Made by a program: the position numbers and the translations under genes. A DNA stretch of 53,932 nt, from NCBI GenBank assembly GCA_026713545.1, contig JAPOOG010000111.1, positions 1 through 53,932 on the forward strand. Direction: 5' to 3'. Position 1 is the stretch's first letter; each line of letters opens with the position of its first letter. The notes below the pieces were generated by a model. That model worked only from the letters and a program-made list of their open reading frames with translations, made no database searches and was not told where the DNA came from. Of the stretch, positions 5,467-53,932 are shown piece after piece. The DNA is from Bryobacterales bacterium (lineage in GTDB: Bacteria; Acidobacteriota; Terriglobia; Bryobacterales; UBA6623).

Positions 5467-5555
5467 CTGACCTGAAACATCCTCCTGATCCAGCGGTACC
5501 GACACTGATCTGGATATTTCCCGCTTGTATGATCCGCAAGCGGGCGGAGAAAAAA
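5467..5555. repeat. Palindromic intergenic repeat, family A copy 1
   Basis: This segment aligns with 13047-13135. Both start CTGACCTGAAACATCC, contain inverted arms GAAACATCC / GGAT(A/G)TTTC, continue with GCTTGTATGATCCGC, and finish with a small GC palindrome (GGGCGGAG) followed by an A run. The shared arms and flanks show a dispersed hairpin-forming element. No coding potential is seen. Confidence 0.75.
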
Positions 5556-5619
5556 CCAAAAACCAAAAACTGCCGGTATCATCCCCTCTTCTGGAGCGAA
5601 CAAGGCTCCCGCCAGTGGT

Positions 5620-6250
5620 TTTCACGAATCACGAGGCACGAATCACGGATTTTTAATACCTTTGGGTACTGAAGCCCTTCAGTCTTTTTTTTTCCGCCCC
5701 GGCCGGCATAGCATGAGGACAGCGATGCGCAAATCCTGCCCTTCGCGAAGAAAAAGCGGAGAAAACATCGAGCAGGGGAGATCACGCCCATGACTCTCCG
5801 ACGAAGGCTGCATTTCTTCCACAAGCGGCGAGGCGAAGTCCGTGCGCATCGCGAATCAGGGCTTTCCAGGCTTTCACTAGCCACTAGTTACTAGTCACAA
5901 GCCACTGCTTTTGAGGTTTTCACGAATCATGAAACACGAGACACGAATCACGGGTTTATCGAATCACAGCCTTGATTCCCTGCCCACTATTGCCCACCAT
6001 TGCCCGTTATTGCCCGGCATTGCTCGGGTAAAAATATTGCCTGCGCCAGTGTCCTCGCTCTGCCCGGACGGCCGCTCCCGCCGCCCGGTCACTGCTTCGC
6101 TGGGCGCGTTCGCGCGGCACGGCGCGGCTTCGCGCGGCGAAAAATGTTGCCCCCGCGCCACTGTCGTTGCCCCGTCAGCCGTTCGCGGTCGGTCTCACGA
6201 CGAGCGCCGCTCGCCGGTCAGTTCCCGCTGCGGCGAACGCAAAATGCACC
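5620..6250. repeat. Long non-coding dispersed repeat, family C copy 1
   Basis: This part of the 5363-6354 intergenic gap aligns in pieces, in the same order, with the reverse complement of about 47.7-48.3 kb. Shared blocks are the ACTGAAGCCCTTCAGT hairpin with T-run, TCGCGAAGAAAAAGCGGAG, ATCGAGCAGG with ATCACGCCCATG, CGAAGGCTGCATT, the CACGAATCACGAG-type run, TTGCCC-rich tandem words, and ACGACGAGCGCCGCTCG. No gene is recognisable. A short stretch (GGCGAGGCGAAGT, near 5829) also matches the family B repeats, so the element is modular. Confidence 0.65.
5668..5693 (+). terminator. Intrinsic terminator-like hairpin within repeat C
   Basis: ACTGAA and TTCAGT form a perfect six-base stem around a GCCC loop, followed directly by C and a run of nine T. 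It lies about 300 bases past the DUF3604 stop and could end that transcript. The same hairpin recurs inverted at 48266-48281, so it travels with the repeat. Confidence 0.55.
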
Positions 6251-6354: not shown

Positions 6355-9300
6355 ATGACTGATCATCTTGCAGGTTCGGTTGCACGCGTCCTGGGCGTGC
6401 TGGGTTCGCTCCTTGTCGTCTGCGGCGCGGCGGCGGCCTCCGAGGATCGGGTCAGCTTCAATGCTGATATCCGTCCGATCTTTTCCGACAGATGCTATAC
6501 GTGCCACGGACCGGACTCGAACAACCGCAAGACTCCGCTGCGTTTCGACACCCAGGAAGGCGCCGTGCAAGACCTGGGAGGACGTTTCGCCATCGTCTCC
6601 GGGGATGTCCGGAAGAGTGAAATCATCAAGCGGCTGACGACCGAAGATCCGATCCGCCGTATGCCACCGGCCTACGAAGGCCACGCCAAGCTGAGCGACC
6701 GTGAGATCGACCTGGTGCGGCGCTGGATCGAGCAGGGCGCCGAGTGGCAATCTCATTGGTCGTTTACGCCGCCCGAGAGACCGGGCCTGCCGCCGGTCAC
6801 GGGTAGGGCGGTCAACGGAATCGACCATTTCGTGCTGGAGCGTCTCGAACGGGAAGGCCTCTCCGCTTCCCCCGAAGCGGACCGCGCAACGCTCATCCGC
6901 CGTGTCACGCTGGACCTGACCGGGCTGCCGCCGACACCCGAAGAACTCGACGACTTCTTGCGGGACACCTCCACCGACGCCTATGAGAAGGTCGTGGACC
7001 GGCTTCTCGTTTCGCCCCGTTACGGCGAGCGCATGGCTGTGCGTTGGCTCGATTCCGCCCGCTACGCCGATACGAACGGCTATCAGACCGATGCCGAGCG
7101 CTATATGTGGCGCTGGCGCGACTGGGTCATCAAGGCGTTCAACGACAACATGCCGTTCGATCAGTTCACGGTCGAACAGATCGCGGGCGACATGCTGCCG
7201 AGCCCGACGCTCGACCAACTGATCGCGACCGGCTTCAACCGCAATCATCGCGGCAACGGCGAGGGCGGCATCATCGAGGAAGAGTACGCCGTGGAGTACG
7301 TCGTCGATCGCGTCGAGACGACATCAACGGTCTGGCTGGGCCTGACCATGGGCTGCGCCCGGTGCCACGACCACAAGTACGACCCGCTCACGCAGAAAGA
7401 GTTCTATCGCTTCTTCGCTTACTTCAACAACGTTCCCGAGAAGGGCAAGGCCTTCAAATACGGCAACTCGCCTCCCTTCATGCCCGCTCCCACGCCGGAG
7501 CATCTCACCGAGCTGGACGGCCTCGAAGAGAAGGTCGGGAAAGCGAAGAGGAAGTTCGACGAACTGGAGCCCGAGATTCAAGCCGCCCTCGAGCAGTGGG
7601 AGGCATCATTGGTGCAGTCCGATTTCGTGGACTGGACGTTGTGGGACAATCTGATCGCTCACTATCGGCTTGACGGCGCCGTAGCCGGACAGACACCGCG
7701 CGCACCCGAGGCCCGCGCCAAGCTCGTCGCCGGACTCCCTCAATTCAAGAAGGGCAAGATTGGCCAGGCGAACTCGTTCGACGGCAAGAGTTACATCGAC
7801 GCCGGCGACGTCGCCGATTTCCGCTTCCAGGAAGACTTCACGCTCTCGGCGTGGATCTACCCCACCGCGGCCAATGGCGCGATCCTCAGCCGAACTTCCG
7901 AATCGACGACGGAAATCAAGGGCTATGGCATCTACCTGGTTGACGCTAAAGTGCAGTTCAACCTGGTGACTCGTTGGCTCGATGACTCCACTCGCGTCGA
8001 GACCGCCGAGCCTCTCGTCCTGAATCGATGGCATCACGTAAGTGCGGTCTACGACGGTTCGCGGTTGGCGAAGGGCGCCGTCGTGTATCTGAACGGTAAG
8101 CCCGCCGAGATGACGGTCGTTGTCGACACGCTCAACCAGGCCTTCGGCGTGAATGAGCCTCTGCGGATTGGAGCCGTCGCCGGCCCCGGCGCGCGCTTCC
8201 GGGGTTTGATGGATGACGTACGTGTTTACGACCGCGCGCTCAGGCCCGATGAGCTCGCCGTCGTGGCCACCGAGTCGCCCTTGAACGAGATTGCGCGCCT
8301 CAAGCCCGATAAGCGTACGGCGGCCCAAGGCGACAAGCTGCGGCTCGCCTTCCTCGACGAGTACGCGCCCGCCCATATCCGTGAGGCATGGGAGACCCTG
8401 ACCGCGATCCGCAAGCAACGCGAAGCTTTCATCAAGAGCTTCCCGACCGTCATGGTCATGAAGGAGCGCGAGGTCACGCGGCCGACTCATCTGCTGGTGC
8501 GCGGCCAATACGATCTTCCTGGCGAAAAGGTCGCACCCGGCGTTCCGGCCGCGCTGCCGCCGATTCCCGAGGGGGTTCCGAACAACCGCCTCGGCCTTGC
8601 GCGCTGGCTCGTCAGTCCTTCCAATCCGCTGACGGCGCGGGTGACCGTCAACCGTTTCTGGCAGTCCTACTTCGGAGCCGGGCTCGTCAAGACGGTCGAG
8701 GATTTCGGTTCGCAAGGTGAATGGCCGACGCATCTGGAACTGCTCGATTGGCTGGCCGCCGAGTTCGTCGAAAGCGGCTGGGACGTCAAGCAGCTCCAGA
8801 AGATGATCGTCATGAGCGCCACCTATCGGCAGTCGTCACGAGTCACTCCCGATTTGGCGTCGAAAGACCCCGGCAACCGGCTGTTGGCTCGCGGGCCGCG
8901 GGTGCGTCTTCCCGCCGAGGTGGTGCGCGATCAGGCGCTGGCGATCTCGGGTCTGTTGGTTGAAGAGATCGGGGGGCCTTCGGTAAAGCCTTATCAGCCG
9001 GCAGGCCTTTGGACGGAACTCGCCGGGGGACGCGACTACGAACAAGGCCACGGCAACGACCTGTACCGCCGCAGCATCTACACGTTCTGGAAACGCGCCG
9101 TGCCGCCGCCCCAGATGTTGAACTTCGATTCGGCGGGCCGAGAGGCCTGCACCGTTCGCGAGACTCGCACCAATACGCCGCTGCAAGCGCTCAACTTGAT
9201 GAACGACGTTACGTTCGTCGAGGCCTCCCGCAAGCTCGCCGAGCGCATGATGACCGAAGGGGGCCGCACGCCGCAAGAGCGCATCGGGTACGGGTATCGT

Positions 9301-9522
9301 CTCGCGACGGCTCATGAGCTCAAGCCGGAAAGCCATGAAATCCTGGTCGGCAGTTACCGCCATTACCTTGACAACTTCCAGACCGACCGGCGCGCTGCGC
9401 TCGATCTGGTTCGACAGGGTGAATCCGAGCGTGACCAGGCGCTGGACGTCGCTCAACTCGCCTCCTATACCACCGTCGCGAGCCTGATCTTGAATCTGGA
9501 CGAGACGATTACGAAGGAATAG
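6355..9522 (+). CDS. PSD1 / DUF1549 / LamG / DUF1553 protein (planctomycete cytochrome C type), copy 1
   Basis: A 1055-residue exported protein. A signal peptide spans about residues 8-29. The PSD1 (planctomycete cytochrome c) domain follows, with a CYTCH haem-type motif at 47-51. DUF1549 covers about 145-360, including the conserved CARCHDHKYDP motif. A LamG-like concanavalin domain lies at about 430-640 (FDGKSYIDAGDV, FTLSAWIYP). DUF1553 forms the rest (NPLTARVTVNRFWQ, LDWLAAEFVESGWDVK, RETRTNTPLQALNLMND). The family is abundant in Planctomycetota, Verrucomicrobiota and Acidobacteriota and is nearly always followed by DUF1501, as here. The function is unproven; a surface-associated role in polysaccharide use is commonly inferred. 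Confidence 0.9.
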   Translation: MTDHLAGSVARVLGVLGSLLVVCGAAAASEDRVSFNADIRPIFSDRCYTCHGPDSNNRKTPLRFDTQEGAVQDLGGRFAIVSGDVRKSEIIKRLTTEDPIRRMPPAYEGHAKLSDREIDLVRRWIEQGAEWQSHWSFTPPERPGLPPVTGRAVNGIDHFVLERLEREGLSASPEADRATLIRRVTLDLTGLPPTPEELDDFLRDTSTDAYEKVVDRLLVSPRYGERMAVRWLDSARYADTNGYQTDAERYMWRWRDWVIKAFNDNMPFDQFTVEQIAGDMLPSPTLDQLIATGFNRNHRGNGEGGIIEEEYAVEYVVDRVETTSTVWLGLTMGCARCHDHKYDPLTQKEFYRFFAYFNNVPEKGKAFKYGNSPPFMPAPTPEHLTELDGLEEKVGKAKRKFDELEPEIQAALEQWEASLVQSDFVDWTLWDNLIAHYRLDGAVAGQTPRAPEARAKLVAGLPQFKKGKIGQANSFDGKSYIDAGDVADFRFQEDFTLSAWIYPTAANGAILSRTSESTTEIKGYGIYLVDAKVQFNLVTRWLDDSTRVETAEPLVLNRWHHVSAVYDGSRLAKGAVVYLNGKPAEMTVVVDTLNQAFGVNEPLRIGAVAGPGARFRGLMDDVRVYDRALRPDELAVVATESPLNEIARLKPDKRTAAQGDKLRLAFLDEYAPAHIREAWETLTAIRKQREAFIKSFPTVMVMKEREVTRPTHLLVRGQYDLPGEKVAPGVPAALPPIPEGVPNNRLGLARWLVSPSNPLTARVTVNRFWQSYFGAGLVKTVEDFGSQGEWPTHLELLDWLAAEFVESGWDVKQLQKMIVMSATYRQSSRVTPDLASKDPGNRLLARGPRVRLPAEVVRDQALAISGLLVEEIGGPSVKPYQPAGLWTELAGGRDYEQGHGNDLYRRSIYTFWKRAVPPPQMLNFDSAGREACTVRETRTNTPLQALNLMNDVTFVEASRKLAERMMTEGGRTPQERIGYGYRLATAHELKPESHEILVGSYRHYLDNFQTDRRAALDLVRQGESERDQALDVAQLASYTTVASLILNLDETITKE

Positions 9523-9553
9523 CACTTATCGATTGAAGCCGGGAGAGATGCCC

Positions 9554-11020
9554 ATGAATCCGCTCGTTGAACGCCACCTTCAAATGACGCGACGCCACTT
9601 CTTCGGCTTGAGCAGCACCGGTATCGGAACGGCGGTTCTTTCGTCTCTGCTGAATGACGGTCTCTCGGCCGCGTCGGCGCGCATGGACGGCCCCGGCAGC
9701 AGCGGGGGCCTCCCCGGGCTGCCCCACTTCGCTCCGAAGGCGAAGCGCGTCATCTACCTCTTCCAGTCAGGTGGGCCGTCGCAGATGGACTTGTTCGACT
9801 ACAAGCCCAAGCTCGACGACATGCGCGCCACCGAGCTGCCCGACTCCATCCGCAAGGGCCAGCGGCTCACCGGCATGACTGCGACACAGACCAGCTTCCC
9901 GGTCGCGCCGTCGATCTTCGAGTTCAAGCAGCGCGGCGAATCCGGCGCCTGGATCAGCGATCTTATGCCGCACGTCGTGAAGGTCGCCGATAATCTCTCG
10001 TTCGTTAAATCGATGCACACTACGGCCATCAACCATGACCCGGCCGTGACGTTCTTCCAGACCGGGTTTCAATTGGCTGGCCGGCCGAGCATCGGAGCCT
10101 GGCTCTCCTACGGCTTGGGTACGCTCAACAAAGATCTTCCGTCGTTCGTCGTCATGGTCTCGCAGGGCGAGGGCCGTAGCGGGCAACCACTCTACGATCG
10201 GCTTTGGGGAAGCGGTTTTCTGCCGACGAGATACCAGGGCGTGAAATTCCGAGGCGTCGGCGATCCGGTTCTGTATTTGTCGAACCCGCCTGGCATCGAT
10301 CCGGGAGTTCGCCGCCGATTCCTCGACGATCTGGCGAAGATGAACGAACTGAAGCACGACGATTTCGGTGACCCGGAAATCTCGACGCGCATTGCGCAGT
10401 ATGAGATGGCCTATCGCATGCAAAGCTCCGTGCCCGAATTGACCGACCTGTCCGGTGAATCGGAAAAAACATTCGAAGCCTACGGACCCGATTCACGCAA
10501 GCGAGGGACCTACGCCGCCAACTGTCTGTTGGCGCGGAGGCTCGCCGAACGCGGGGGGCGCTTCGTGCAACTTTTCCACCGCGGCTGGGACCAGCACACC
10601 GAGCTGCCCAAAGGCATTCGGCTTCAAGCGAAGGACACGGATCAGCCCACCGCCGCGCTGATCCAGGACCTGAAAGATCGCGGCATGCTCGAAGATACGC
10701 TCGTGATTTGGGGCGGCGAGTTCGGCCGCACCGTTTATAGCCAGGGCCGCCTCACCGAAGACGACTACGGCCGCGATCACCACCCGCGCTGCTTCACCAT
10801 CTTCATGGCGGGAGGCGGCATCCAGCCCGGAATCAGCTACGGCGAGACGGATGACTACGGCTATAACATCACGAAAGATCCTGTGGACGTCCACGACCTT
10901 CACGCGACGATCCTGCACCTGCTCGGCGTCGAGCACACCAAGCTCACTTTCAAATATCAGGGCCGTCACTTCCGCCTGACGGATGTTCACGGCAATGTGG
11001 TCAAGCCGCTGTTGACCTAG
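9554..11020 (+). CDS. DUF1501 (sulfatase-fold) Tat-exported protein, copy 1
   Basis: A 488-residue DUF1501 protein, structurally related to the alkaline phosphatase/sulfatase superfamily. The twin-arginine signal TRRHFFGLSSTGIG lies near the N-terminus. Typical blocks follow: YLFQSGGPSQMDLFDYKP, INHDPAVTFFQTG, WGGEFGRTVYSQG and GRDHHPRCFTIFMAGGG. The start at 9554 (MNPLVERHL) was chosen because GGGAG at 9541-9545 is correctly spaced for it and too close to the ATG at 9548. It starts 31 bases after the PSD1 gene stop, so the two are one operon. A second pair occurs inverted at 18.6-23.2 kb. Confidence 0.9.
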   Translation: MNPLVERHLQMTRRHFFGLSSTGIGTAVLSSLLNDGLSAASARMDGPGSSGGLPGLPHFAPKAKRVIYLFQSGGPSQMDLFDYKPKLDDMRATELPDSIRKGQRLTGMTATQTSFPVAPSIFEFKQRGESGAWISDLMPHVVKVADNLSFVKSMHTTAINHDPAVTFFQTGFQLAGRPSIGAWLSYGLGTLNKDLPSFVVMVSQGEGRSGQPLYDRLWGSGFLPTRYQGVKFRGVGDPVLYLSNPPGIDPGVRRRFLDDLAKMNELKHDDFGDPEISTRIAQYEMAYRMQSSVPELTDLSGESEKTFEAYGPDSRKRGTYAANCLLARRLAERGGRFVQLFHRGWDQHTELPKGIRLQAKDTDQPTAALIQDLKDRGMLEDTLVIWGGEFGRTVYSQGRLTEDDYGRDHHPRCFTIFMAGGGIQPGISYGETDDYGYNITKDPVDVHDLHATILHLLGVEHTKLTFKYQGRHFRLTDVHGNVVKPLLT

Positions 11021-13046: not shown

Positions 13047-13135
13047 CTGACCTGAAACATCCTGTTTATCAAGCCGGGTTGACACCCATCCGGATGTTTC
13101 CTGCTTGTATGATCCGCCCACGGGCGGAGGAAAAA
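13047..13135. repeat. Palindromic intergenic repeat, family A copy 2
   Basis: It aligns with 5467-5555. The inverted arms GAAACATCC and GGATGTTTC are perfect here and enclose an inner GGTTGACACCC. The 3' part has CCGCCCACGGGCGG. It directly abuts the family B element that starts at 13136. Confidence 0.75.
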
Positions 13136-13340
13136 CTAGCCTGCATTTTTTACCACGTGGCGAGGTGAAGTGCGTGAGAGGGTCGCCAGGACGAGGCGCG
13201 AGCCGGGCGGAGGAAAAAGGCGCGCGCAGGCGTACTTGACAGTACGTCGAGCACGGCAAGCAAGCGTTGCGAAGGAAAAGCGAAGTCATGGCGGTCGTAT
13301 CGCGTGCTTCCCCCGTCGGGTGGTGAGACATACAGGCTAG
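13136..13340. repeat. MITE-like repeat, family B copy 1 (between hfq and hflX)
   Basis: A 205-base non-coding element bounded by CTAG on both sides. The left end is CTAGCCTGCAT and the right end ACAGGCTAG, each followed inward by a TCACCAC/GTGGTGA-type arm (the left arm here is TTACCAC). The centre holds the palindrome CGTAC-TTGACA-GTACG. The whole unit is an imperfect inverted repeat. Its ends match those of the copy split by the IS at 33.3-34.9 kb. Confidence 0.8.
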
Positions 13341-15348: not shown

Positions 15349-16409
15349 CTCTGTGCACGATCGTGCGTGTGGTTCTCTTTCTTCCGCTCGCCATGTCCGC
15401 ACTCGCTCAACCCTACACGGCTCAGAAGACGACCGCTGACGGCATCCCTATCGTTCGACTCCATGACAACGAGCGGGACATTGTCGTCTCGATTGCGCCG
15501 ACCCTCGGAAACAACGCCTACGAGATGATCCTTGGCGGCAGGAACGTCTTCTGGTTTCCCTACGAATCCGTTGCCGACTTCGCTCGCGAGCCGAAGCTCT
15601 GCGGAAACCCCTTTCTCGCTCCGTGGGCAAACCGCCTGGACGAGGATGGGTTCTATTTCGAAGGCAAGCACTATCTGCTAGACAAACATCTCGGCAATCT
15701 GCTCCACGACGGCAACGGCCTTCCAATCCACGGTTTGCTTCTCTATCGGCCTGAATGGGAGGTCGTCGAGTTGGAAGCGACTGCAGAGGAAGCGTACGTC
15801 ACGAGCCGGTTCGTATTCGCGAGGCATGCGGAGTTGCTCGCTCACTTCCCGTTCGCGCATCAGATCGATATGACGTATCGGCTCCGAGCAGGTGCGCTGG
15901 CAATCGAAACGCGCATCGTGAATCAAGGCTCGCAGACCATGCCGCTCTCGGTCGGCTATCACCCTTACTTCCAGATTCACGATGCTCCCCGCGACGCCTG
16001 GACTGTCCGACTGCCGGTAGAGCACATCTGGACATTGACGGACCGGCTCGTCCCCACCGGAGGCACTCAACCGGTTCGCAACGTATTCCCCAACCCGGAG
16101 CGAATCTCGCTCGCCGGAACGTTTCTCGATCACGTCTTCGGAGGCCTTCGCCGCGCTGCCGATGGAACCGCCCGGTTTGCCGTGCAGGGCAAACAGCAAA
16201 CCATCGAGGTTCGCTACGGGGAAAAATACCGCGAGGCGGTCGTCTATGCCCCTCCCGGCAAGGAGCGCGCATTCATCTGCTTTGAACCGATGAGCAGCAT
16301 CACGAACGCTTTCAACCTGGCTCATCGAGGCCGATACGATCACCTCCAAAGCATTCCGGCGGGCGGAGAATGGATGGAGACCTACTCCATCCACCCCAGC
16401 GGATTCTAG
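15345..16409 (+). CDS. Exported aldose 1-epimerase-like protein
   Basis: A 354-residue protein of the galactose mutarotase-like superfamily. The ATG at 15345 overlaps the preceding stop and yields a signal peptide (MTLCTIVRVVLFLPLAMSALAQ), unusual for a normally cytosolic enzyme. Family features are NRLDEDGFYFEGKHY, an IHGLL histidine, the GYHPYFQI catalytic-histidine block, and FEPMSSITNAFN, where the glutamate is the likely general base. It probably interconverts anomers of free or oligomeric sugars in the periplasm. The stop codon TAG is also the left CTAG end of a family B repeat. Confidence 0.8.
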   Translation: MTLCTIVRVVLFLPLAMSALAQPYTAQKTTADGIPIVRLHDNERDIVVSIAPTLGNNAYEMILGGRNVFWFPYESVADFAREPKLCGNPFLAPWANRLDEDGFYFEGKHYLLDKHLGNLLHDGNGLPIHGLLLYRPEWEVVELEATAEEAYVTSRFVFARHAELLAHFPFAHQIDMTYRLRAGALAIETRIVNQGSQTMPLSVGYHPYFQIHDAPRDAWTVRLPVEHIWTLTDRLVPTGGTQPVRNVFPNPERISLAGTFLDHVFGGLRRAADGTARFAVQGKQQTIEVRYGEKYREAVVYAPPGKERAFICFEPMSSITNAFNLAHRGRYDHLQSIPAGGEWMETYSIHPSGF

Positions 16410-16519
16410 CCTGCCTTTCTCACCACGCGGCGAGCTGAACTGCGTGAGAGGGCCGCCAGGACGAGGCGCGCGCCGCTTGGCGCGCGCAGGCGTACTTGAC
16501 GGTACGTCGAGCACGGCCA
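16406..16519. repeat. MITE-like repeat, family B copy 2, right half missing
   Basis: It begins CTAGCCTGCCTTTCTCACCAC, continues with AAGTGCGTGAGAGG (here AACTGCGTGAGAGG) and the GGACGAGGCGCG block, and reaches the central CGTACTTGACGGTACG and GAGCACGGC. Similarity stops near 16519, so only the left half and the centre remain. The CTAG includes the stop codon of the epimerase-like gene. Confidence 0.75.
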
Positions 16520-18636: not shown

Positions 18637-20070
18637 CTAAGCAACCAACTCGCGAATGACCTCGCCGCCGACATCGGTAAGACGAAACTGCCTCCCTTGA
18701 TAGGGATACGTCAGCTGGGCGTGATCGATGCCAAGCTGGTGCAAAAGTGTGGCATGCAGATCGTTAACGTGTGCTGGTTTGTCAATGGGGTTGTATGAGA
18801 ATTCGTCGGTCTCGCCGTAGATCACTCCGGGCTTGAGGCCCCCTCCGGCAAGCCAAATCGTGAAACAGCTCGGATGGTGGTCGCGGCCGTAGCTGTCGTT
18901 GGTCATCTTGCCCTGGCAGTACACCGTGCGCCCGAATTCCCCGCCCCAGACCACCAGGGTTTCATCGAGCAGACCGCGCCGGTCGAGATCATCAACCAAC
19001 GCCGCCGAAGCCTGATCAGTATCGGCGCACTGTTGAGCAATTTGATCTGGCAACGACCGGTGCTGGTCCCATCCGCGATGAAAGAGCTGGATGTACCGAA
19101 CCCCGCGCTCCACCAAACGTCTTGCGACCAGACAGTGGCGGGCGAATGTTCCCGGGATTCGTGCTGACTCGCCGTACTGGGCGAACGTGGATTCCGGCTC
19201 GCTTGACAGATCCATCAGTTCCGGGACCGACGCCTGCATGCGGTACGCCATTTCGTATTGGGCAATGCGCGTCTCGGTCTCCGGGTCCGCGGACTCTTCG
19301 CGTTGGATCTGATTCAGCGCCGCCAAGTCATCGAGGAACATGCGGCGACGATTTCGACTCACTCCCTCCGGGTCCGAGAGATAAAGGACGGGGTCGCCCT
19401 GTGAACGGAACTTGACGCCTTGATAGCGGCTCGGCAAGAAGCCACTGCCCCACAGCCGCGTGTAGAGCGCTTGGCCAACGCGGGCCTTGCCGCGAGAAAT
19501 CATGACGATGAATGCCGGAAGGTCTTCATTCTCCGTGCCAAGGCCGTAGGAGAGCCACGCCCCAATGCTGGGACGACCGGCAAGCTGGGACCCGGTCTGA
19601 AGGAACGTCACGGCCGGATCGTGATTGATCGCTTCGGTGTGCATCGTCCGGATGAACGAGAGCTTGTCGGCAATCTTGGCCGTATGCGGCAGCAATTCAC
19701 TGACCCAGGCGCCGGATTCGCCGTGCCGCTTGAACTCGAACAAAGTCTTCTGGACCGGAAACGTTTTTTGCGATGCCGTCATGCCGGTCAGTCGCTGACC
19801 CTTTCGTACCGAATCGGGCAGTTCCGTACCGTGAAGCTGCTCAAGCTTGGGCTTGTAATCGAACAGATCGAGCTGCGAAGGCCCACCGCTCTGGAACAGA
19901 TAGATGACATGCTTGGCCTTGGGCGCCATGTGCGGCAAACCCGGTAATCCACCCTTTCCCGCAGCGTCCTTTCCCATTAAATGAGCCAACGCTGCGATGC
20001 CCAGGCCGCTTGCGCTGCGACCGAAGAAATGACGCCTGGTCAGAAGGGTTGCCCAGTCAGTCGGTTTCAT
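18637..20070 (-). CDS. DUF1501 (sulfatase-fold) Tat-exported protein, copy 2
   Basis: A 477-residue paralogue of the DUF1501 gene at 9.5-11.0 kb, with the same landmarks: the Tat motif TRRHFFGRSASGLG, YLFQSGGPSQLDLFDYKP, INHDPAVTFLQTG, WGGEFGRTVYCQG and GRDHHPSCFTIWLAGGG. Its ATG at 20070 overlaps the stop of the upstream PSD1 gene (ATGA), so the two are translationally coupled, tighter than in copy 1. It is exported by the Tat path, which implies folding or cofactor loading before export. Confidence 0.9.
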   Translation of the reverse strand: MKPTDWATLLTRRHFFGRSASGLGIAALAHLMGKDAAGKGGLPGLPHMAPKAKHVIYLFQSGGPSQLDLFDYKPKLEQLHGTELPDSVRKGQRLTGMTASQKTFPVQKTLFEFKRHGESGAWVSELLPHTAKIADKLSFIRTMHTEAINHDPAVTFLQTGSQLAGRPSIGAWLSYGLGTENEDLPAFIVMISRGKARVGQALYTRLWGSGFLPSRYQGVKFRSQGDPVLYLSDPEGVSRNRRRMFLDDLAALNQIQREESADPETETRIAQYEMAYRMQASVPELMDLSSEPESTFAQYGESARIPGTFARHCLVARRLVERGVRYIQLFHRGWDQHRSLPDQIAQQCADTDQASAALVDDLDRRGLLDETLVVWGGEFGRTVYCQGKMTNDSYGRDHHPSCFTIWLAGGGLKPGVIYGETDEFSYNPIDKPAHVNDLHATLLHQLGIDHAQLTYPYQGRQFRLTDVGGEVIRELVA

Positions 20071-23000
20071 TGCTTCGTCACCGTCTCATCCAGATTCAGG
20101 ATCAAACCTGCGGTCATGGCATATGCCGCAAGCTCGGTTCGTTTCACGCGAGTGTGTACCGGACTTTCTCCTTGGGCCAATAGTCGCGCCGCCGCTTTCG
20201 GATCTTCCCGGAAGCTCTCCAGTTGTTTGGCGAATGCCCTCTCGAGGATGTCGGACTCCTGACCACTGGGAGGCCGCGAGGTCGCCATTTCGAATCCGTA
20301 TGCCAGTCGGTCCCTGGGGGTCTCGCCACCTTCCAAGTACATTCGCTCTGCGAACTTTCGCGACGCCTCTACAAACGTCACATCGTTCATCAGATTCAGC
20401 GCCTGCAAGGGTGTGTTGGTTCGCTCCGTCCTCACCGTGCACGTCTCTCGCGTGGACGAATCGAAATTGAGCATCGAAGGAGGGCCAATGGTTCGACGCC
20501 AGTAGGTATAAAGGCTCCTGCGATAAAGATCATCGCCGTCGTCGGAGATGTAGCCTCCGCCGGAGGCGATGTCGATCCATAGTCCTTCCGGCTGATAGGG
20601 CTTTACGGACGGCCCACCCGATTGTTCGTGCAGCAACCCTGCCAGAAGCAAAGCCTGGTCACGTACAGCTTCCGCCGGTAGTCGAAACCGCGGTCCCCGA
20701 GCAAACAGCTTGTTTTCAGGGTCCCTGCTCGCGGCATCATCGATCCCCTTCGAGTCTTGCCGGTATGTTGCGCTCATCACGATCGTCTTCAGAAGCGATT
20801 TAACGTCCCAGCCGCCTTCAACAAACTCGACAGCCAACCAATCCAGGAGTTCCGGGTGCGTCGGCCGCTCGCCCTGTGTCCCCAGGTTCTCCGGCGTCCG
20901 GACGAGACCCTCGCCGAACAGCATCTGCCAGAATCGGTTCACCGTGACACGCGCCGTTAAAGGATTGGCAGGATCGACCAGCCAGCGCGCCAAAGCAAGG
21001 CGATCGTTGGCCGCCGACTCCGGCAGGGACGGCAGGACGCTCAGAACGCCGGGAAGAACTTTCTCGCCAGGTTTATCGTATGCCCCACGCTCGAGTACGA
21101 AGGTGTCTCGGGGCGGGTCCTTCTCGGCCATGATCATTACGCTGGAGACTCGGCTCTCCAGGTCATCTCTGACCCGCTTCAACCGGCTCAGCGTCGCCCA
21201 CGAAGCCCGTACTTCCCGAGGCCCGTATTTATCGACGAAAGCCCACTCGAGCTTGTTTCTTTGATCCTCAGTCCGTTCTCCGCTCCGGATCTGTGCGATC
21301 TCGCTGAGGTTCTTGGCGACAGCCAACGTCAAGGCCTCTTCGCTCTTCAACTCCCGGTCATAGACAACGATTTCATCTATGCTGCCAACGAACCCACTGT
21401 CCGCGTCTGCGCCTGTGCCGATTCGAAAAGGCGCTTTCGTCTTCATATCGGTATTGGAATAGTCCAACTCGGCGACCGTATCGACTTCTCGGCCGTCAAT
21501 GTAGAGCTTGGCGCCTGCAGCGATAAGCGATCCGTCGTACGTCGCGGTCACGTGCATCCAGCGGAGCAGCGGTAGGGAAGCGCGTGAACTGACGATGATC
21601 CAGTCGTCTATCCGGCTGATTAGCTTGAGCTTCAACTTCCCTTTCTCGAGGGCTAGCGTGATGCCCCTGCCGGCGTTCTCTTCATGAGTGTCGAACTTCT
21701 CCGAGCGACTCAGAATCACGCCGTCGGCTGACTCCGGCTTGATCCATGCGGCGACGCTGAACGCGTCGTTGTAGTCGTATTTCAGCAGCTCCGGCTCTTC
21801 GATATGGCCGTGGCCCTGCAGTGAAATCGCCCGGCCGACGTGGCCGTCAGACTGTACGACTTGGCCGGAAACCGATGCCCCTCTCAGATCGCTTTCGAAA
21901 TCGAAGCTCGCCACCAGACCATCGCGAGGAAGCCATTGCAACGGCTTCTTCGAGCGGGCAATTCTACTCTCCCACTTCTCGAAAGCATGGGAGGCGGAAT
22001 CGAACGTCTCAAGGAATTGCTTTTCGGAGAGAGAGATTTCATCCGAGAGATCCTTCAGCCGTCGAACTTGCTCCCTCGTCGGTGCTGGAATCATCGGGGG
22101 AGAGTTGAAGGGTCGCACTACCCTGCCTCGCTCGGGAACGTTATTGAAGTATGCGTAAAGCTGATAAAACTCCTTCTGCGAAATAGGGTCGTACTTATGA
22201 TCGTGGCATCGCGCACAACCAACCGTCAGACCCAGAAAAACCGTCGACATGGTCTCCACGCGATCCACCACATACTCGACGCGGTACTCCTCATCCACGA
22301 TTCCCAACTCACTGTTTGTGCGATGGTTGCGGTTGAAGCCCGTGGCGATCAACTGCTCAAGAGTGGGGTCGGGAAGCATGTCACCGGCGATCTGCTCGAC
22401 CGTAAACTCGTCAAAAGGTTTGTTCGAGTTGAACGCGTCGATCACCCAATCTCGCCAACGCCACATCTCGACGGGAGCGTCGTTTTGATATCCCTGTGTG
22501 TCTGCATAGCGCGCAGCATCCAGCCAGCGGCCCGCCATCCGTTCTCCAAAACGCTGAGAGTCGAGGAGCCGATCGACCACTCGTTCGTAGGCGTTCGGGG
22601 ACGTGTCGTCGACAAAAGAGCGTACTTCCTTTATTTCAGGCGGCAGACCTGTCAAATCCAGGCTCAACCTGCGGATGAGCGACCTGCGATCCGCCTCTTC
22701 GGCCGCTGACATCCCCTCTTTCTCGAGACGTTCGAATACGAAGCGATCGATCGGGTTGCGCACAAGGTGTTCCCATCGCACCGCTGGCTGGCTGGGACGC
22801 GTAGGCGCTACGAAAGCCCAATGAGCACTCCATGGCGCACCGGCTTCGACCCAGGCGCGCAGGATCTCGATCTCCCCGTCAGCGAGCTTGTCATGTCCCA
22901 AGTAGGCCGGCGGCATGCGCTGCGAAACATCGTCGCTGACGACACGCCGCAAAGCCTCGCGCGCCATGTTGCGCGCCTGATCTTCGACATCAAGCCGCAG

Positions 23001-33311: not shown

Positions 33312-33403
33312 CTAGCCTGCATTTCTCACCACGCGGCGAGGCGAAGTGCGTGAGAGGGCCGTCAAGACGAGGCGCGAGCCGCTTGTCGTGCGCAGGCGTA
33401 CTT
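33312..33403. repeat. MITE-like repeat, family B copy 3, left half
   Basis: It begins at CTAG (33312) with a TIR that is a perfect inverted match to the right half at 34921-34941. It contains AAGTGCGTGAGAGGGCCGTC and ends GCAGGCGTACTT, exactly half of the central palindrome, where the IS begins. Confidence 0.85.
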
Positions 33404-33505
33404 ATGGGATGGTTCGCTCCCACCCCAGCTGCGTCGTGCATTTCGGCCATGCTGGTTACAGCGGTCTTCCGCGACCGCCGTTACTGAACCGGAAAGGAAC
33501 CAACC

Positions 33506-34520
33506 ATGGCATCGATCCAACCAACACTCCGCAACAGCGCACTGCAACAGGTCGCCACGATCGGCCTGGATCTTGCAAAGTACAGCGTCGACTTCGTCGG
33601 CCTGGACGCCGCCGGCCGGGTACTCACTCGCCGCCAATACTCGAAGGGCAAGCTGCTGGAGGTAACCGCCAGGATGCAGCCCTGCCGGATCGGCATGGAG
33701 GCCTGCTGCGGCGCCCATCACCTGGGCCGCCAACTGCTGGCCCAGGGGCACGACGTGAAGCTGATGCCGCCCAAATATGTGAAGCCCTTCGTCAAGCGCG
33801 ACAAGAACGACTCGCAGGACGCCGAGGCCTGTGCGGAGGCCTGTCTGCGGCCGACCATGCGCTTCGTGGCGGTCAAGAGCGAGGAACAACTGTCGATGCA
33901 GTCGCTGCACCGCTAATCGTTCGCGGCTGGTGGGCAACTCCACGCAACTGATCAACCAGGCGCGCGCCTTTCTTCTGCAACGCGGCATCGCCCTGCCGCA
34001 GGGCAAGCAGTGCTTCGCCGACCGGCTGCCGGAGATCCTCGAGGACGCCGACAACGGCCTGCCCGACGAAATGCGGGCGCTGCTGGCCGGCATGCTGGCC
34101 GAATGGGAGGTGCTGGAAGAGAAGATTCAGCAAGTCAACCGCTACCTGCTGAGGAAAGCGAAGGCCAGCGAGGCCTGCCGGCGGCTGAGAGAGATCCCCG
34201 GCATCGGCGTGCAGACGGCGACCGCCTTGGTGGCGACGATCGGCCACGGAGAGGCTTTCGAGAAGGGGCGTGATGTCGCCGCCTGGCTGGGGCTGGTGCC
34301 GAGGGAGTACTCCACTGGGGGCAAGCAGCGTCTGGGAGGCATCAGCAAGCGCGGCAACCGCTACGTCCGGACGCTGCTGGTGCACTGCGCTCGCTCGGGC
34401 CTCGAGGTCCTCTCCCAGCGTAGCGACCAACTAGGCCAGTGGCTGCGGCGCATGCTCGTCCACAAAGACCGGCGAGTCGTGATCGTCGCGCTGGCGGCGC
34501 GGCTGGCACGTATTGCCTAG
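33506..34520 (+). pseudogene. IS110/IS1111 transposase, frameshifted
   Basis: The N-terminal DEDD RuvC-like domain reads IGLDLAKYSVDFVGLD, IGMEACCGAHHLG and KRDKNDSQDAEA (likely Asp, Glu, Asp, Asp ligands). After LHR at 33913 an in-frame TAA stops translation. The reading continues one base over as NRSRLVGNSTQLINQARAFLLQRG to the end at 34520. The C-terminal Transposase_20 domain follows: LREIPGIGVQTATALVATIG, WLGLVPREYSTGGKQRLGGISKRGN, with the conserved serine region. The ATG has GGAAAGGA upstream. One inserted base would explain the break; programmed frameshifting is not typical of this family. A joined product would be about 337 residues, the usual length. Confidence 0.85.
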
Positions 34521-34649
34521 GCCTTGCTGAGCAGCGGCCAGCGTTTCGGTCGACAGCGGCAGCACGCCCCGGCGGCTTGACACAAACCCAACCCGCTACC
34601 GAGGAAAGGAGGAATCTCACCGTTCGTCTGCTCATTCCCGATTGATGGA

Positions 34650-34800
34650 CAAAACGGTCGTACCGGCGTCACCGAATCCTGTTACTGTTCATGGCCCCGA
34701 GAGGTCGACGTACTTACGAGGACCGGGACGTGCGGACCCCATCATGGCCCGGAACCCGCGCGGTTCCATCGAGAGGTCGGATATATTGGCGCAGACCACC
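34650..34800 (+). ncRNA. Candidate bridge RNA (seekRNA) of the IS1111-type element
   Basis: The 3' non-coding end of the IS holds two similar modules, each with ATGGCCC, then CGAGAGGTCG, then a loop closed by GGTC...GACC. In module 1, TACTGTTC (34683-34690) is the complement of the right target flank GAACAGTA, and CGTACTT (34709-34715) equals the left target flank plus TT. In module 2, ATATATT (34781-34787) equals the right IS end plus TT, and CCCAT (34738-34742) complements the first five bases of the left IS end. This matches the target- and donor-binding loops of known bridge RNAs. The ends of the RNA are approximate and transcription is inferred. Confidence 0.55.
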
Positions 34801-34846
34801 GTTCAGCAAGAGGGAAGCGATAGACATCCCGGGAGCGAACCATATA

Positions 34847-34941
34847 TTGAACAGTACGTTGAGCACGGCAAGCAAGCGTTGCGAAGTCATGGCGGTCGTA
34901 TCGCGTGCTTCGGCCGTCGGGTGGTGAGAAATGCAGGCTAG
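34847..34941. repeat. MITE-like repeat, family B copy 3, right half
   Basis: It resumes the repeat as TTGAACAGTACG, GAGCACGGCAAGCAAGCG, GCGAAGTCATGGCGGTCG, TATCGCGTGCTTC, and ends GTGGTGAGAAATGCAGGCTAG at 34941. The last 21 bases are the exact reverse complement of the left end at 33312-33332. Confidence 0.85.
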
Positions 34942-47699: not shown

Positions 47700-48300
47700 T
47701 CGCCACGGCCCAAGAAGTCCGGAGGGCGACTGGAGCTGCCGCGAGCGGCGCTCGTCGCGAGGCCGACCCGAAACGGCGGACGGTGCACGGACACTTGTTC
47801 AAGGGCATATTTTTTTGCCGGGAAATAGTGGGTAATACCGGGAAATGGTGGGAGAACCGTGACATGGCAGCGGGTACGGCGGTGCGGTCGGCGCTTTTCG
47901 GTGGAACGACACTTGCGCACCCACGGCTACCTGAACGGCAATAAAGTCCGTGTTTCATGTCTCGTGATTCGTGATCGGTGAAAACCACAAAATACGTGTT
48001 GCCGGCGCGGGCGGCTCGCGCCTCGTTCCGACGGTTCTCTCACGCACTTCCCCTCCCCAAATGGGGAGGAATGCAGCCTTCGCCGCAGAAGCATGGGCGT
48101 GATATCACCTGCTCGATTCATTCCTCCGCTTTTTTCTTCGCGAGGGCCAGAATGCCCGCGGGAGGCGGCAGCCGCCAGAAGCGAGCGCCGCTCCGACAGC
48201 AAGCCGACCTCCAGGATTCCCGCCTCGCTTTCTTCATGCTAAGCAGGCCGGGACTGAAAAAAAAGACTGAAGGGCTTCAGTACCACGAGGCATCGAGGCA
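47700..48300. repeat. Long non-coding dispersed repeat, family C copy 2 (inverted)
   Basis: The reverse complement follows the same order of blocks as 5620-6250, ending with GACGAGCGCCGCTCG at the 47.7 kb side. It also contains a family B module (AAGTGCGTGAGAGAACCGTC, GAACGAGGCGCGAGCCGC in reverse complement, about 48.00-48.06 kb). Confidence 0.65.
48259..48281 (-). terminator. Terminator-like hairpin within repeat C copy 2
   Basis: On the minus strand ACTGAA-GCCC-TTCAGT is followed by C and a T-run, the same hairpin as at 5668-5693. No gene reads into it from the right, so it is more likely a part of the repeat than an active terminator here. Confidence 0.35.
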
Positions 48301-52978: not shown

Positions 52979-53932
52979 ATGACTGATTCCGACGAGGTGA
53001 GGAGCGAGAACGCGGCGCTGCGCGAGCGCAGCTCGACCCTCAACGCGGCCATCCTGCGGATCAACGCCAGTCTCGACCTCGACACCGTGCTCGGCGAGGC
53101 CGTGGCCAGCGCCCGCGGGCTGACCGGCGCGCGCTACGGCATCATCACCACCATCGACGAGACGGGCGCGCACAGCGGCCCGGTGTACTCGGGCTTCACG
53201 GCGGAGGAACATCGGGAAATGCTGGCCCTGCCCGACAAGGCCCGCCTGTTCAAGCACCTGCGCGACCTGCCCGGTCCGATGCGGGTGGCGGACCTGTCGG
53301 GCCTGATCCGCTCGCTCGGCCTCGAACCCACCCCGATGTTCTCGCGGGCCTTCCAGGGCGCGCCGCTGCGCCACCGCGGGGTGCACCTGGGCCACTTCTT
53401 TCTCGCCGAGAAGGCGGGCGGGGAGGCCTTCAGCGCCGAGGACGAGGAGGTGCTGGTGCTGTTCGCCTCGCAGGCCGCGGCGGCGGTCGCCAATGCCCGC
53501 GCGCATCGCAGCGAGCGGCAAGCGAGAGCCCGGCTGGAGGCCCTGGTCGAGACCGCGCCGGTCGGCGTCGTGGTGTTCGATGCGGGCAACGGCCGGCCGG
53601 TGACGTTCAACCGCGCGGCGCGGCGGATCGCGGAGAGCCTGCACCGACCGGGCTGCGCGCCCGAGCAGTTGCTGGAGGTGATCTCGTGCCGGCGCGCCGA
53701 CGGCCGGGAGATCCCCCTGGGCGAGTTCCCGACCGCGCACCGGCTCGACAGCGGCGAGACGGGGCGGGCCGAGGGGGTCGGGCCGGCGGGGCCCGGGGTG
53801 GGGGTCGCGTGGACCGGCGGGCGCACCCGGCGTCCGCCGGGGCCCGCCAGCTCGATCTCCTCGGCCCGCCCCGTCTCGCCGCTGGCGAGCCGGTGCGCGG
53901 TCGGGAACTCGCCCAGGGGGATCTCCCGGCCG
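52979..53932 (+). CDS. GAF-PAS sensor protein, 3' part missing
   Basis: It starts at ATG 52979 with AAGGAGG upstream. A short coiled-coil start (SDEVRSENAALRERSSTLNAAILRINASLDLDTVLGEA) leads into a GAF domain at about 20-180 (ARGLTGARYGIITTIDE, HLGHFFLAEKAGG, FSAEDEEVLVLFASQAAAAVANARAH), then the beginning of a PAS-type domain (LEALVETAPVGVVVFD, REIPLGEFPTAHRL). It is likely the N-terminus of a sensor histidine kinase. Sequence is reliable only to about 53774; beyond that the window folds back into an inverted copy of the same gene, so the last 50 or so codons are not real protein. Confidence 0.75.
   Translation, partial: MTDSDEVRSENAALRERSSTLNAAILRINASLDLDTVLGEAVASARGLTGARYGIITTIDETGAHSGPVYSGFTAEEHREMLALPDKARLFKHLRDLPGPMRVADLSGLIRSLGLEPTPMFSRAFQGAPLRHRGVHLGHFFLAEKAGGEAFSAEDEEVLVLFASQAAAAVANARAHRSERQARARLEALVETAPVGVVVFDAGNGRPVTFNRAARRIAESLHRPGCAPEQLLEVISCRRADGREIPLGEFPTAHRLDSGETGRAEGVGPAGPGVGVAWTGGRTRRPPGPASSISSARPVSPLASRCAVGNSPRGISRP
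53701..53932. repeat. Inverted repeat at window end (probable fold-back chimera)
   Basis: The arms 53701-53774 and 53859-53932 are near-perfect reverse complements (one difference seen, in CTCGACAG versus CTCGCCAG), separated by 84 bases. Read in reverse, the right arm and the middle give GREIPLGEFPTAHRL...RAEEIELAGPGGRRVR, the natural continuation of the PAS region, so the tail is the gene turned around. Confidence 0.75.

What the first reader, a model, noticed from the sequence alone, without database searches (positions are those of the whole stretch)
33312..34941. IS110-family element inserted exactly at the apex of a palindromic MITE
Removing 33404-34846 plus one TT restores a complete family B repeat. 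The insertion point falls inside the central palindrome CGTAC-TTGA(A)CA-GTACG, the tip of the long hairpin the repeat could form. IS1111 relatives are known to choose structured repeats such as REP sequences and attC sites. This suggests a new target class: the apex of a MITE, which would give the IS many safe landing sites.
Basis: partly seen in the sequence, partly recalled or inferred. Interest (0 to 1): 0.78.

Follow-up and report, generated by a model that had tools for sequence, protein, structure and literature searches.

The report
RNA-guided jumping gene inside a repeat
A bacterial jumping gene of the IS1111 type sits at the tip of a high-copy hairpin repeat, and its own guide RNA spells out that repeat's centre, so the landing site was probably chosen by RNA pairing; a very similar case is already known in Coxiella.

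Summary
A 1.44-kb IS110/IS1111-family element (33404-34846, TT on both sides) interrupts a B repeat at its central palindrome. A sister species (G001) has the same B copy, uninterrupted, between the same two genes. The element meets the IS1111-group definition: 13-bp subterminal inverted repeats with 7-bp and 3-bp extensions, and a long non-coding region downstream of tnp. That region folds into a two-loop bridge/seek RNA. Its two target guides spell CGTACTT and (T)GAACAGTA, the 15-nt centre of this B subfamily. The 15-mer occurs 13 more times in the genome, always inside an empty B copy (expected about 0.004-0.01). In relatives the guides also match their own flanks (permutation p about 0.001). 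Those relatives' targets are unstructured and lie in genomes without B, so the family does not require hairpins; RNA guidance explains the site. The 'new target class' claim fails: Coxiella IS1111 inserts into the MITE QMITE2, and other members use REPs, attC sites and Tn21 ends. This transposase is frameshifted, and only one insertion exists. That B is a MITE is plausible but unproven. Verdict: new member of a known kind, whose guide was probably retargeted to a genus-restricted repeat.

The parts
33312..33403 (+). left half of the B repeat copy (ends with core TT)
   Evidence: BLAST and alignment with other B copies; orthologous empty copy in G001
34847..34941 (+). right half of the same B repeat copy (starts with core TT; TTGAACAGTACG)
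33404..34846 (+). IS110/IS1111-family insertion sequence (33402-34846 by the IS1111 convention, TT counted in the left extension)
   Evidence: ends shared with relatives' copies in G008, G011, G013, G014
33402..33408 (+). 7-bp left extension TTATGGG
   Evidence: sequence
33409..33421 (+). left subterminal inverted repeat ATGGTTCGCTCCC (13 bp)
   Evidence: perfect inverted match to 34831-34843
34831..34843 (-). right subterminal inverted repeat (GGGAGCGAACCAT on the + strand, 13 bp)
34844..34846 (+). 3-bp right extension ATA
33506..33916 (+). transposase, N-terminal part (DEDD_Tnp_IS110, PF01548); reading frame ends early
   Evidence: Pfam E 3.9e-11; intact 362-364 aa relatives in G013 and G014
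33831..34520 (+). transposase, C-terminal part in another frame (Transposase_20, PF02371; GL-P----STG motif)
   Evidence: Pfam E 2e-25; frameshift and stop near 33908-33917
34668..34729 (+). predicted target-binding hairpin of the bridge/seek RNA
   Evidence: consensus fold of 9 copies
34683..34691 (+). guide for the right target side: TACTGTTCA, complementary to TGAACAGTA of the B top strand
34709..34715 (+). guide for the left target side: CGTACTT, identical to the B top strand left of and including the core
34730..34792 (+). predicted donor-binding hairpin; CCCAT (34738-34742) matches the left end (ATGGG), ATATATT (34781-34787) matches the right end plus core
   Evidence: fold; sequence matches
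13136..13340 (+). uninterrupted B repeat copy used as comparison
16406..16517 (+). further B copy (aligned part)

Best explanation
A member of the IS1111 group of the IS110 family inserted once into this B repeat because the target-binding loop of its bridge/seek RNA matches the centre of a B subfamily. Shown by sequence: the anatomy and the matches (target-binding loop 34668-34729 with guide TACTGTTCA facing CGTACTT; donor-binding loop 34730-34792 matching the IS ends). Inferred from work on IS621 and ISEc11: a circular form of the IS, with its DEDD recombinase and this RNA, paired with both strands of the B centre and recombined at the TT core, leaving TT on each side. The event happened in this species after its split from G001, since G001 still has the empty site (shown). 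The guide was probably altered to fit B somewhere in this genus, because B is not found in the genera where the related IS copies live (inferred). The copy now looks immobile because its transposase gene is frameshifted.
For: Ends and core TT shared with relatives' copies. sTIR 13 bp and 7/3-bp extensions as defined for IS1111. Two hypervariable segments in an otherwise conserved downstream RNA face each other across an internal loop in the consensus fold. They match their own flanks better than other copies' flanks (right p 0.0015, left p 0.0004, joint the best of 720 pairings), e.g. G008 CACTTGTCAA / TTGACAAGTG and G013 TCGCCACAGTT / TCGCCACAGTT. The window's guides give 15 contiguous target bases, CGTACTTGAACAGTA, found 13 more times in the genome, 13 of 13 in B copies, against 0.004-0.01 expected. 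Order of guides (top-strand match 5' of bottom-strand match) is that reported for IS1111. Empty orthologous B with TTGAAC centre in G001. B absent from genus g6.
Against: Only one insertion in one genome. The right guide sits one base out of register with the relatives' right guides, so the first core T is not paired on that side. For three of the relatives' copies (G011 C310, G008 5042, G008 5426) the guide-flank match is weak. Covariation in the predicted RNA is slight (2 of 33 pairs), and the single window sequence does not fold better than shuffles (z +1.7). The RNA was not observed.
Confidence: 0.88

Rival explanations
1. The recombinase recognises the hairpin (cruciform or single-stranded tip) formed by B, as once proposed for REP- and attC-targeting IS elements; sequence matching is secondary.
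For: B folds into one long hairpin (z -8.9) and the insertion lies in its tip (z -4.8 for the 58-nt junction). Several known targets are palindromic.
Against: Five other targets of the same IS group show no special hairpin, yet guides match several of them. Guide pairing alone singles out B in the genome. Bridge RNA work shows linear, reprogrammable double-stranded targets.
Confidence: 0.05
2. The guide-B match is a coincidence helped by the palindrome (GTAC occurs in both halves), and the insertion in B was unguided chance.
For: The two guides share TAC because the target is nearly palindromic; only one event is known.
Against: A 15-nt contiguous match in the two predicted guide positions; no other copy's right guide matches the B flank by more than 3 in a row, against 8 for its own; 13 of 13 genomic matches lie in B.
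Confidence: 0.03
3. The junction is an assembly artefact: B is a high-copy repeat and the genome is a draft of 170 contigs.
For: About 200 B centres in the genome; draft assembly.
Against: Unique genes on both sides are in the same order around an empty B in G001, the local B variant (TTGAAC centre) is shared with G001, and the guides match this site.
Confidence: 0.03

Closest known systems
IS1111 of Coxiella burnetii in QMITE2 (PMC5896051)
   Same: IS1111-group element inserted in copies of a palindromic MITE-like repeat; empty copies at orthologous places in another strain
   Different: There 20 of 21 IS copies sit in QMITE2; here one IS copy in one B copy. QMITE2 and B were not shown to be related.
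ISPa11 (P. aeruginosa REP) and ISEc11/ISXne4 seekRNA systems (PMC11187229)
   Same: sTIRs, downstream non-coding region, two target-matching segments with the top-strand match 5' of the bottom-strand match; natural redirection between close relatives
   Different: Different target; here a ~190-bp repeat restricted to one genus; no experiment on this element.
IS621 bridge RNA (PMC11208160)
   Same: RNA with target- and donor-binding loops; recombination at a core dinucleotide; target in a high-copy palindromic repeat (REP)
   Different: IS621 is of the IS110 group: RNA in the left end, core CT, opposite guide order.
IS4321/IS5075 targeting Tn21-family terminal repeats (Partridge and Hall 2003, as cited)
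   Same: IS1111 member that targets a part of another mobile element
   Different: Target is a transposon end, not the centre of a repeat.

Membership tests
IS110 family (DEDD recombinases) | N-terminal DEDD domain PF01548 and C-terminal PF02371 | tested here: met
   E 3.9e-11 and 2e-25, in two frames of one broken gene; intact 362-364 aa relatives
IS1111 group | subterminal inverted repeats of 11-13 bp with 7-bp left and 3-bp right extensions | tested here: met
   ATGGTTCGCTCCC/GGGAGCGAACCAT, TTATGGG, ATA; definition from PMC11187229
IS1111 group | longer non-coding region downstream of tnp | tested here: met
   tnp ends about 34520; 326 bp to the right end against about 100 bp on the left
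IS1111 group | GL-P----S(T)G motif in the C-terminal domain | tested here: met
   LGLVPREYSTGG in the window frame, LGLTPxExSTGG in relatives
bridge/seek RNA | two short segments matching opposite strands of the target, facing each other in a loop | tested here: met
bridge/seek RNA | donor-binding segments matching the IS ends | tested here: met
   ATATATT and CCCAT in the second loop; short matches, no statistics done
bridge/seek RNA | RNA made, bound by the recombinase and needed for insertion | not testable with these tools
   needs experiment
MITE (the B repeat) | terminal inverted repeats, short, many copies | tested here: met
   ends TAGCCTGCATTTCTCACCA / TGGTGAGAAATGCAGGCTA, 183-205 bp, about 200 copies
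MITE (the B repeat) | target site duplication | tested here: inconclusive
   no duplication beyond a possible TA at the ends in 55 copies
MITE (the B repeat) | a parent transposase with the same ends, or evidence of recent mobility | tested here: inconclusive
   no parent was looked for genome-wide; two-species comparison gave no clean empty site for B itself

The most novel reading that the evidence does not exclude
The bridge RNA guides of this IS lineage were rewritten inside this genus to fit the centre of a genus-restricted, high-copy repeat, so that the window and its relatives capture natural retargeting of an RNA-guided recombinase to a host repeat, with the 15-nt guide specificity, 13 unused perfect sites and the empty orthologous site all available.
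Probability: 0.5. Interest if true: 0.55.

Novelty: new member of a known kind. Interest (0 to 1): 0.42.

Why it matters
How IS110/IS1111 elements acquire new guides is an open question. Here the guide points to a repeat found only in the host genus, while sister IS copies in another genus carry other guides for other sites, which makes a natural series for studying retargeting. It also supports the view that preference for structured repeats follows from guide sequence and repeat abundance rather than from recognition of hairpins.

Tried and rejected
Rfam scan of the window: only a tRNA, no known family for the bridge RNA or for B. Single-sequence RNA fold of the window's bridge RNA is no better than shuffles; the alignment fold was used instead. 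The IS is single copy in this genome. The other LE-like match in this genome (G000 C3:65938) is coding-like sequence conserved in G001 and G002, not an IS end. The IS110-type transposases of G001 and G002 are unrelated at DNA level and not near a B copy. Target duplications of B: none found. B presence/absence between G000 and G001: differences are complex, no clean empty site. Plasmid collection: only 64-71% matches to the transposase region, no full-length relative.

Full report
Observation. The window holds an IS element between the two halves of a B repeat. Joining 33312-33403 with the right half after removing one TT gives a sequence that aligns with another B copy (13136-13340) over its whole length. 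In relatives of the same family (handles G008, G011, G013, G014) copies 73-78% identical begin and end at the same bases, with TT outside each end. By the IS1111 convention the element is 33402-34846 with a 7-bp left extension TTATGGG, 13-bp subterminal inverted repeats and a 3-bp right extension ATA (convention from PMC11187229).

Empty site. In the sister species G001 the same two genes flank a complete, uninterrupted B copy whose centre reads CGTACTTGAACTGTAC. The TTGAAC centre at this place is therefore older than the insertion, and the insertion is younger than the split of the two species.

Transposase. PF01548 and PF02371 domains are present but in different frames, with a frameshift and stop near 33908-33917. 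G013 and G014 hold intact 362-364 aa relatives. Unless this is a sequencing error, the copy is no longer autonomous.

Guide RNA. Aligning the region downstream of tnp from nine copies shows a conserved RNA with two hypervariable segments. In the consensus fold these face each other across an internal loop, followed by a second hairpin whose loop matches the IS ends. In the window the segments are TACTGTTCA (complement of TGAACAGTA in the right flank) and CGTACTT (equal to the left flank with core). In relatives they match their own flanks: G008 CACTTGTCAA against right flank TTGACAAGTG, G013 TCGCCACAGTT against left flank TCGCCACAGTT, G014 AGAGACAA against right flank TTGTCTCT. Permuting flanks among copies gives p 0.0015 (right), 0.0004 (left) and 1/720 for both together, the smallest value possible. 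The order of the two segments is that reported for IS1111 and opposite to IS110. Three relatives' copies match weakly; two of these are internally deleted derivatives that may have been moved in trans (inference).

Specificity for B. The guide-specified 15-mer CGTACTTGAACAGTA occurs 13 more times in the genome, each time in a B copy and each time uninterrupted; 0.004-0.01 would be expected by chance. Net of the control pattern, B has about 200 centres in G000 and about 300 in G001, few diverged copies in G002, and none in the other genera of the family searched. The IS copies of genus g6 lie at other places.

Hairpin or guide? B folds as one long hairpin, but five other target sites of the same IS group are not structured (z +0.1 to -1.5). 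Guide pairing therefore suffices and the hairpin is a property of B.

Mechanism. Shown here: ends, core, guides, fold by alignment, empty site, genome-wide specificity of the guide. Inferred from experiments on IS621 and ISEc11 (PMC11208160, PMC11187229): circular intermediate, RNA-bound DEDD recombinase, pairing with both target strands, exchange at the core. Not shown: transcription of the RNA, activity, and how the guide came to match B.

Known cases. IS1111 of C. burnetii inserts in QMITE2, described as a MITE with a GTAG REP (PMC5896051); REP, attC and other targets are known for other members. The claimed new target class is therefore not new.

Limits. One insertion; the RNA is predicted, not observed; the window's right guide is one base out of register with the relatives' guides; B as a MITE rests on inverted ends and copy number only (no target duplication).

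Noticed in passing
L139 (G008:C1:5042001-5042328): A ~330-bp derivative of this IS with both ends and the bridge RNA but no transposase: a possible non-autonomous form. A ~630-bp derivative lies at G008:C1:5425837-5426466 (L151).
   Followed up: partly
G014 loci L136, L140, L143, L146, L149, L152, L154: In G014 the IS copies share the right flank TT(T)GCCTG at otherwise different places, i.e. one guide used repeatedly; contig breaks hide the guide itself.
   Followed up: partly
G000:C3:65938-65955 (L100): An 18-of-18 match to the IS left end lies in coding-like sequence (LCYREMGWFAPDEHT) conserved in G001 and G002; apparently a coincidence.
   Followed up: partly
window 13047-13136 and 5467-5556: Another repeat (80% identical copies) ends exactly where the B copy at 13136 begins.
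   Followed up: no
window 53701-53932: Inverted repeat with 96-nt arms, 94% complementary, at the very end of the contig; may be a further repeat family at which the assembly broke.
   Followed up: no
window 6964-10251 and 19406-22607: Three long inverted pairs at 71-72% identity: seemingly duplicated gene groups in opposite orientation.
   Followed up: no
window 5617-5650, 5915-5948, 47943-47974; L210/L211 near the B copy opposite window 26468: A second small repeat (CACGAATCACGAGACACGAA-like) recurs, and in G001 lies inside a B copy.
   Followed up: no
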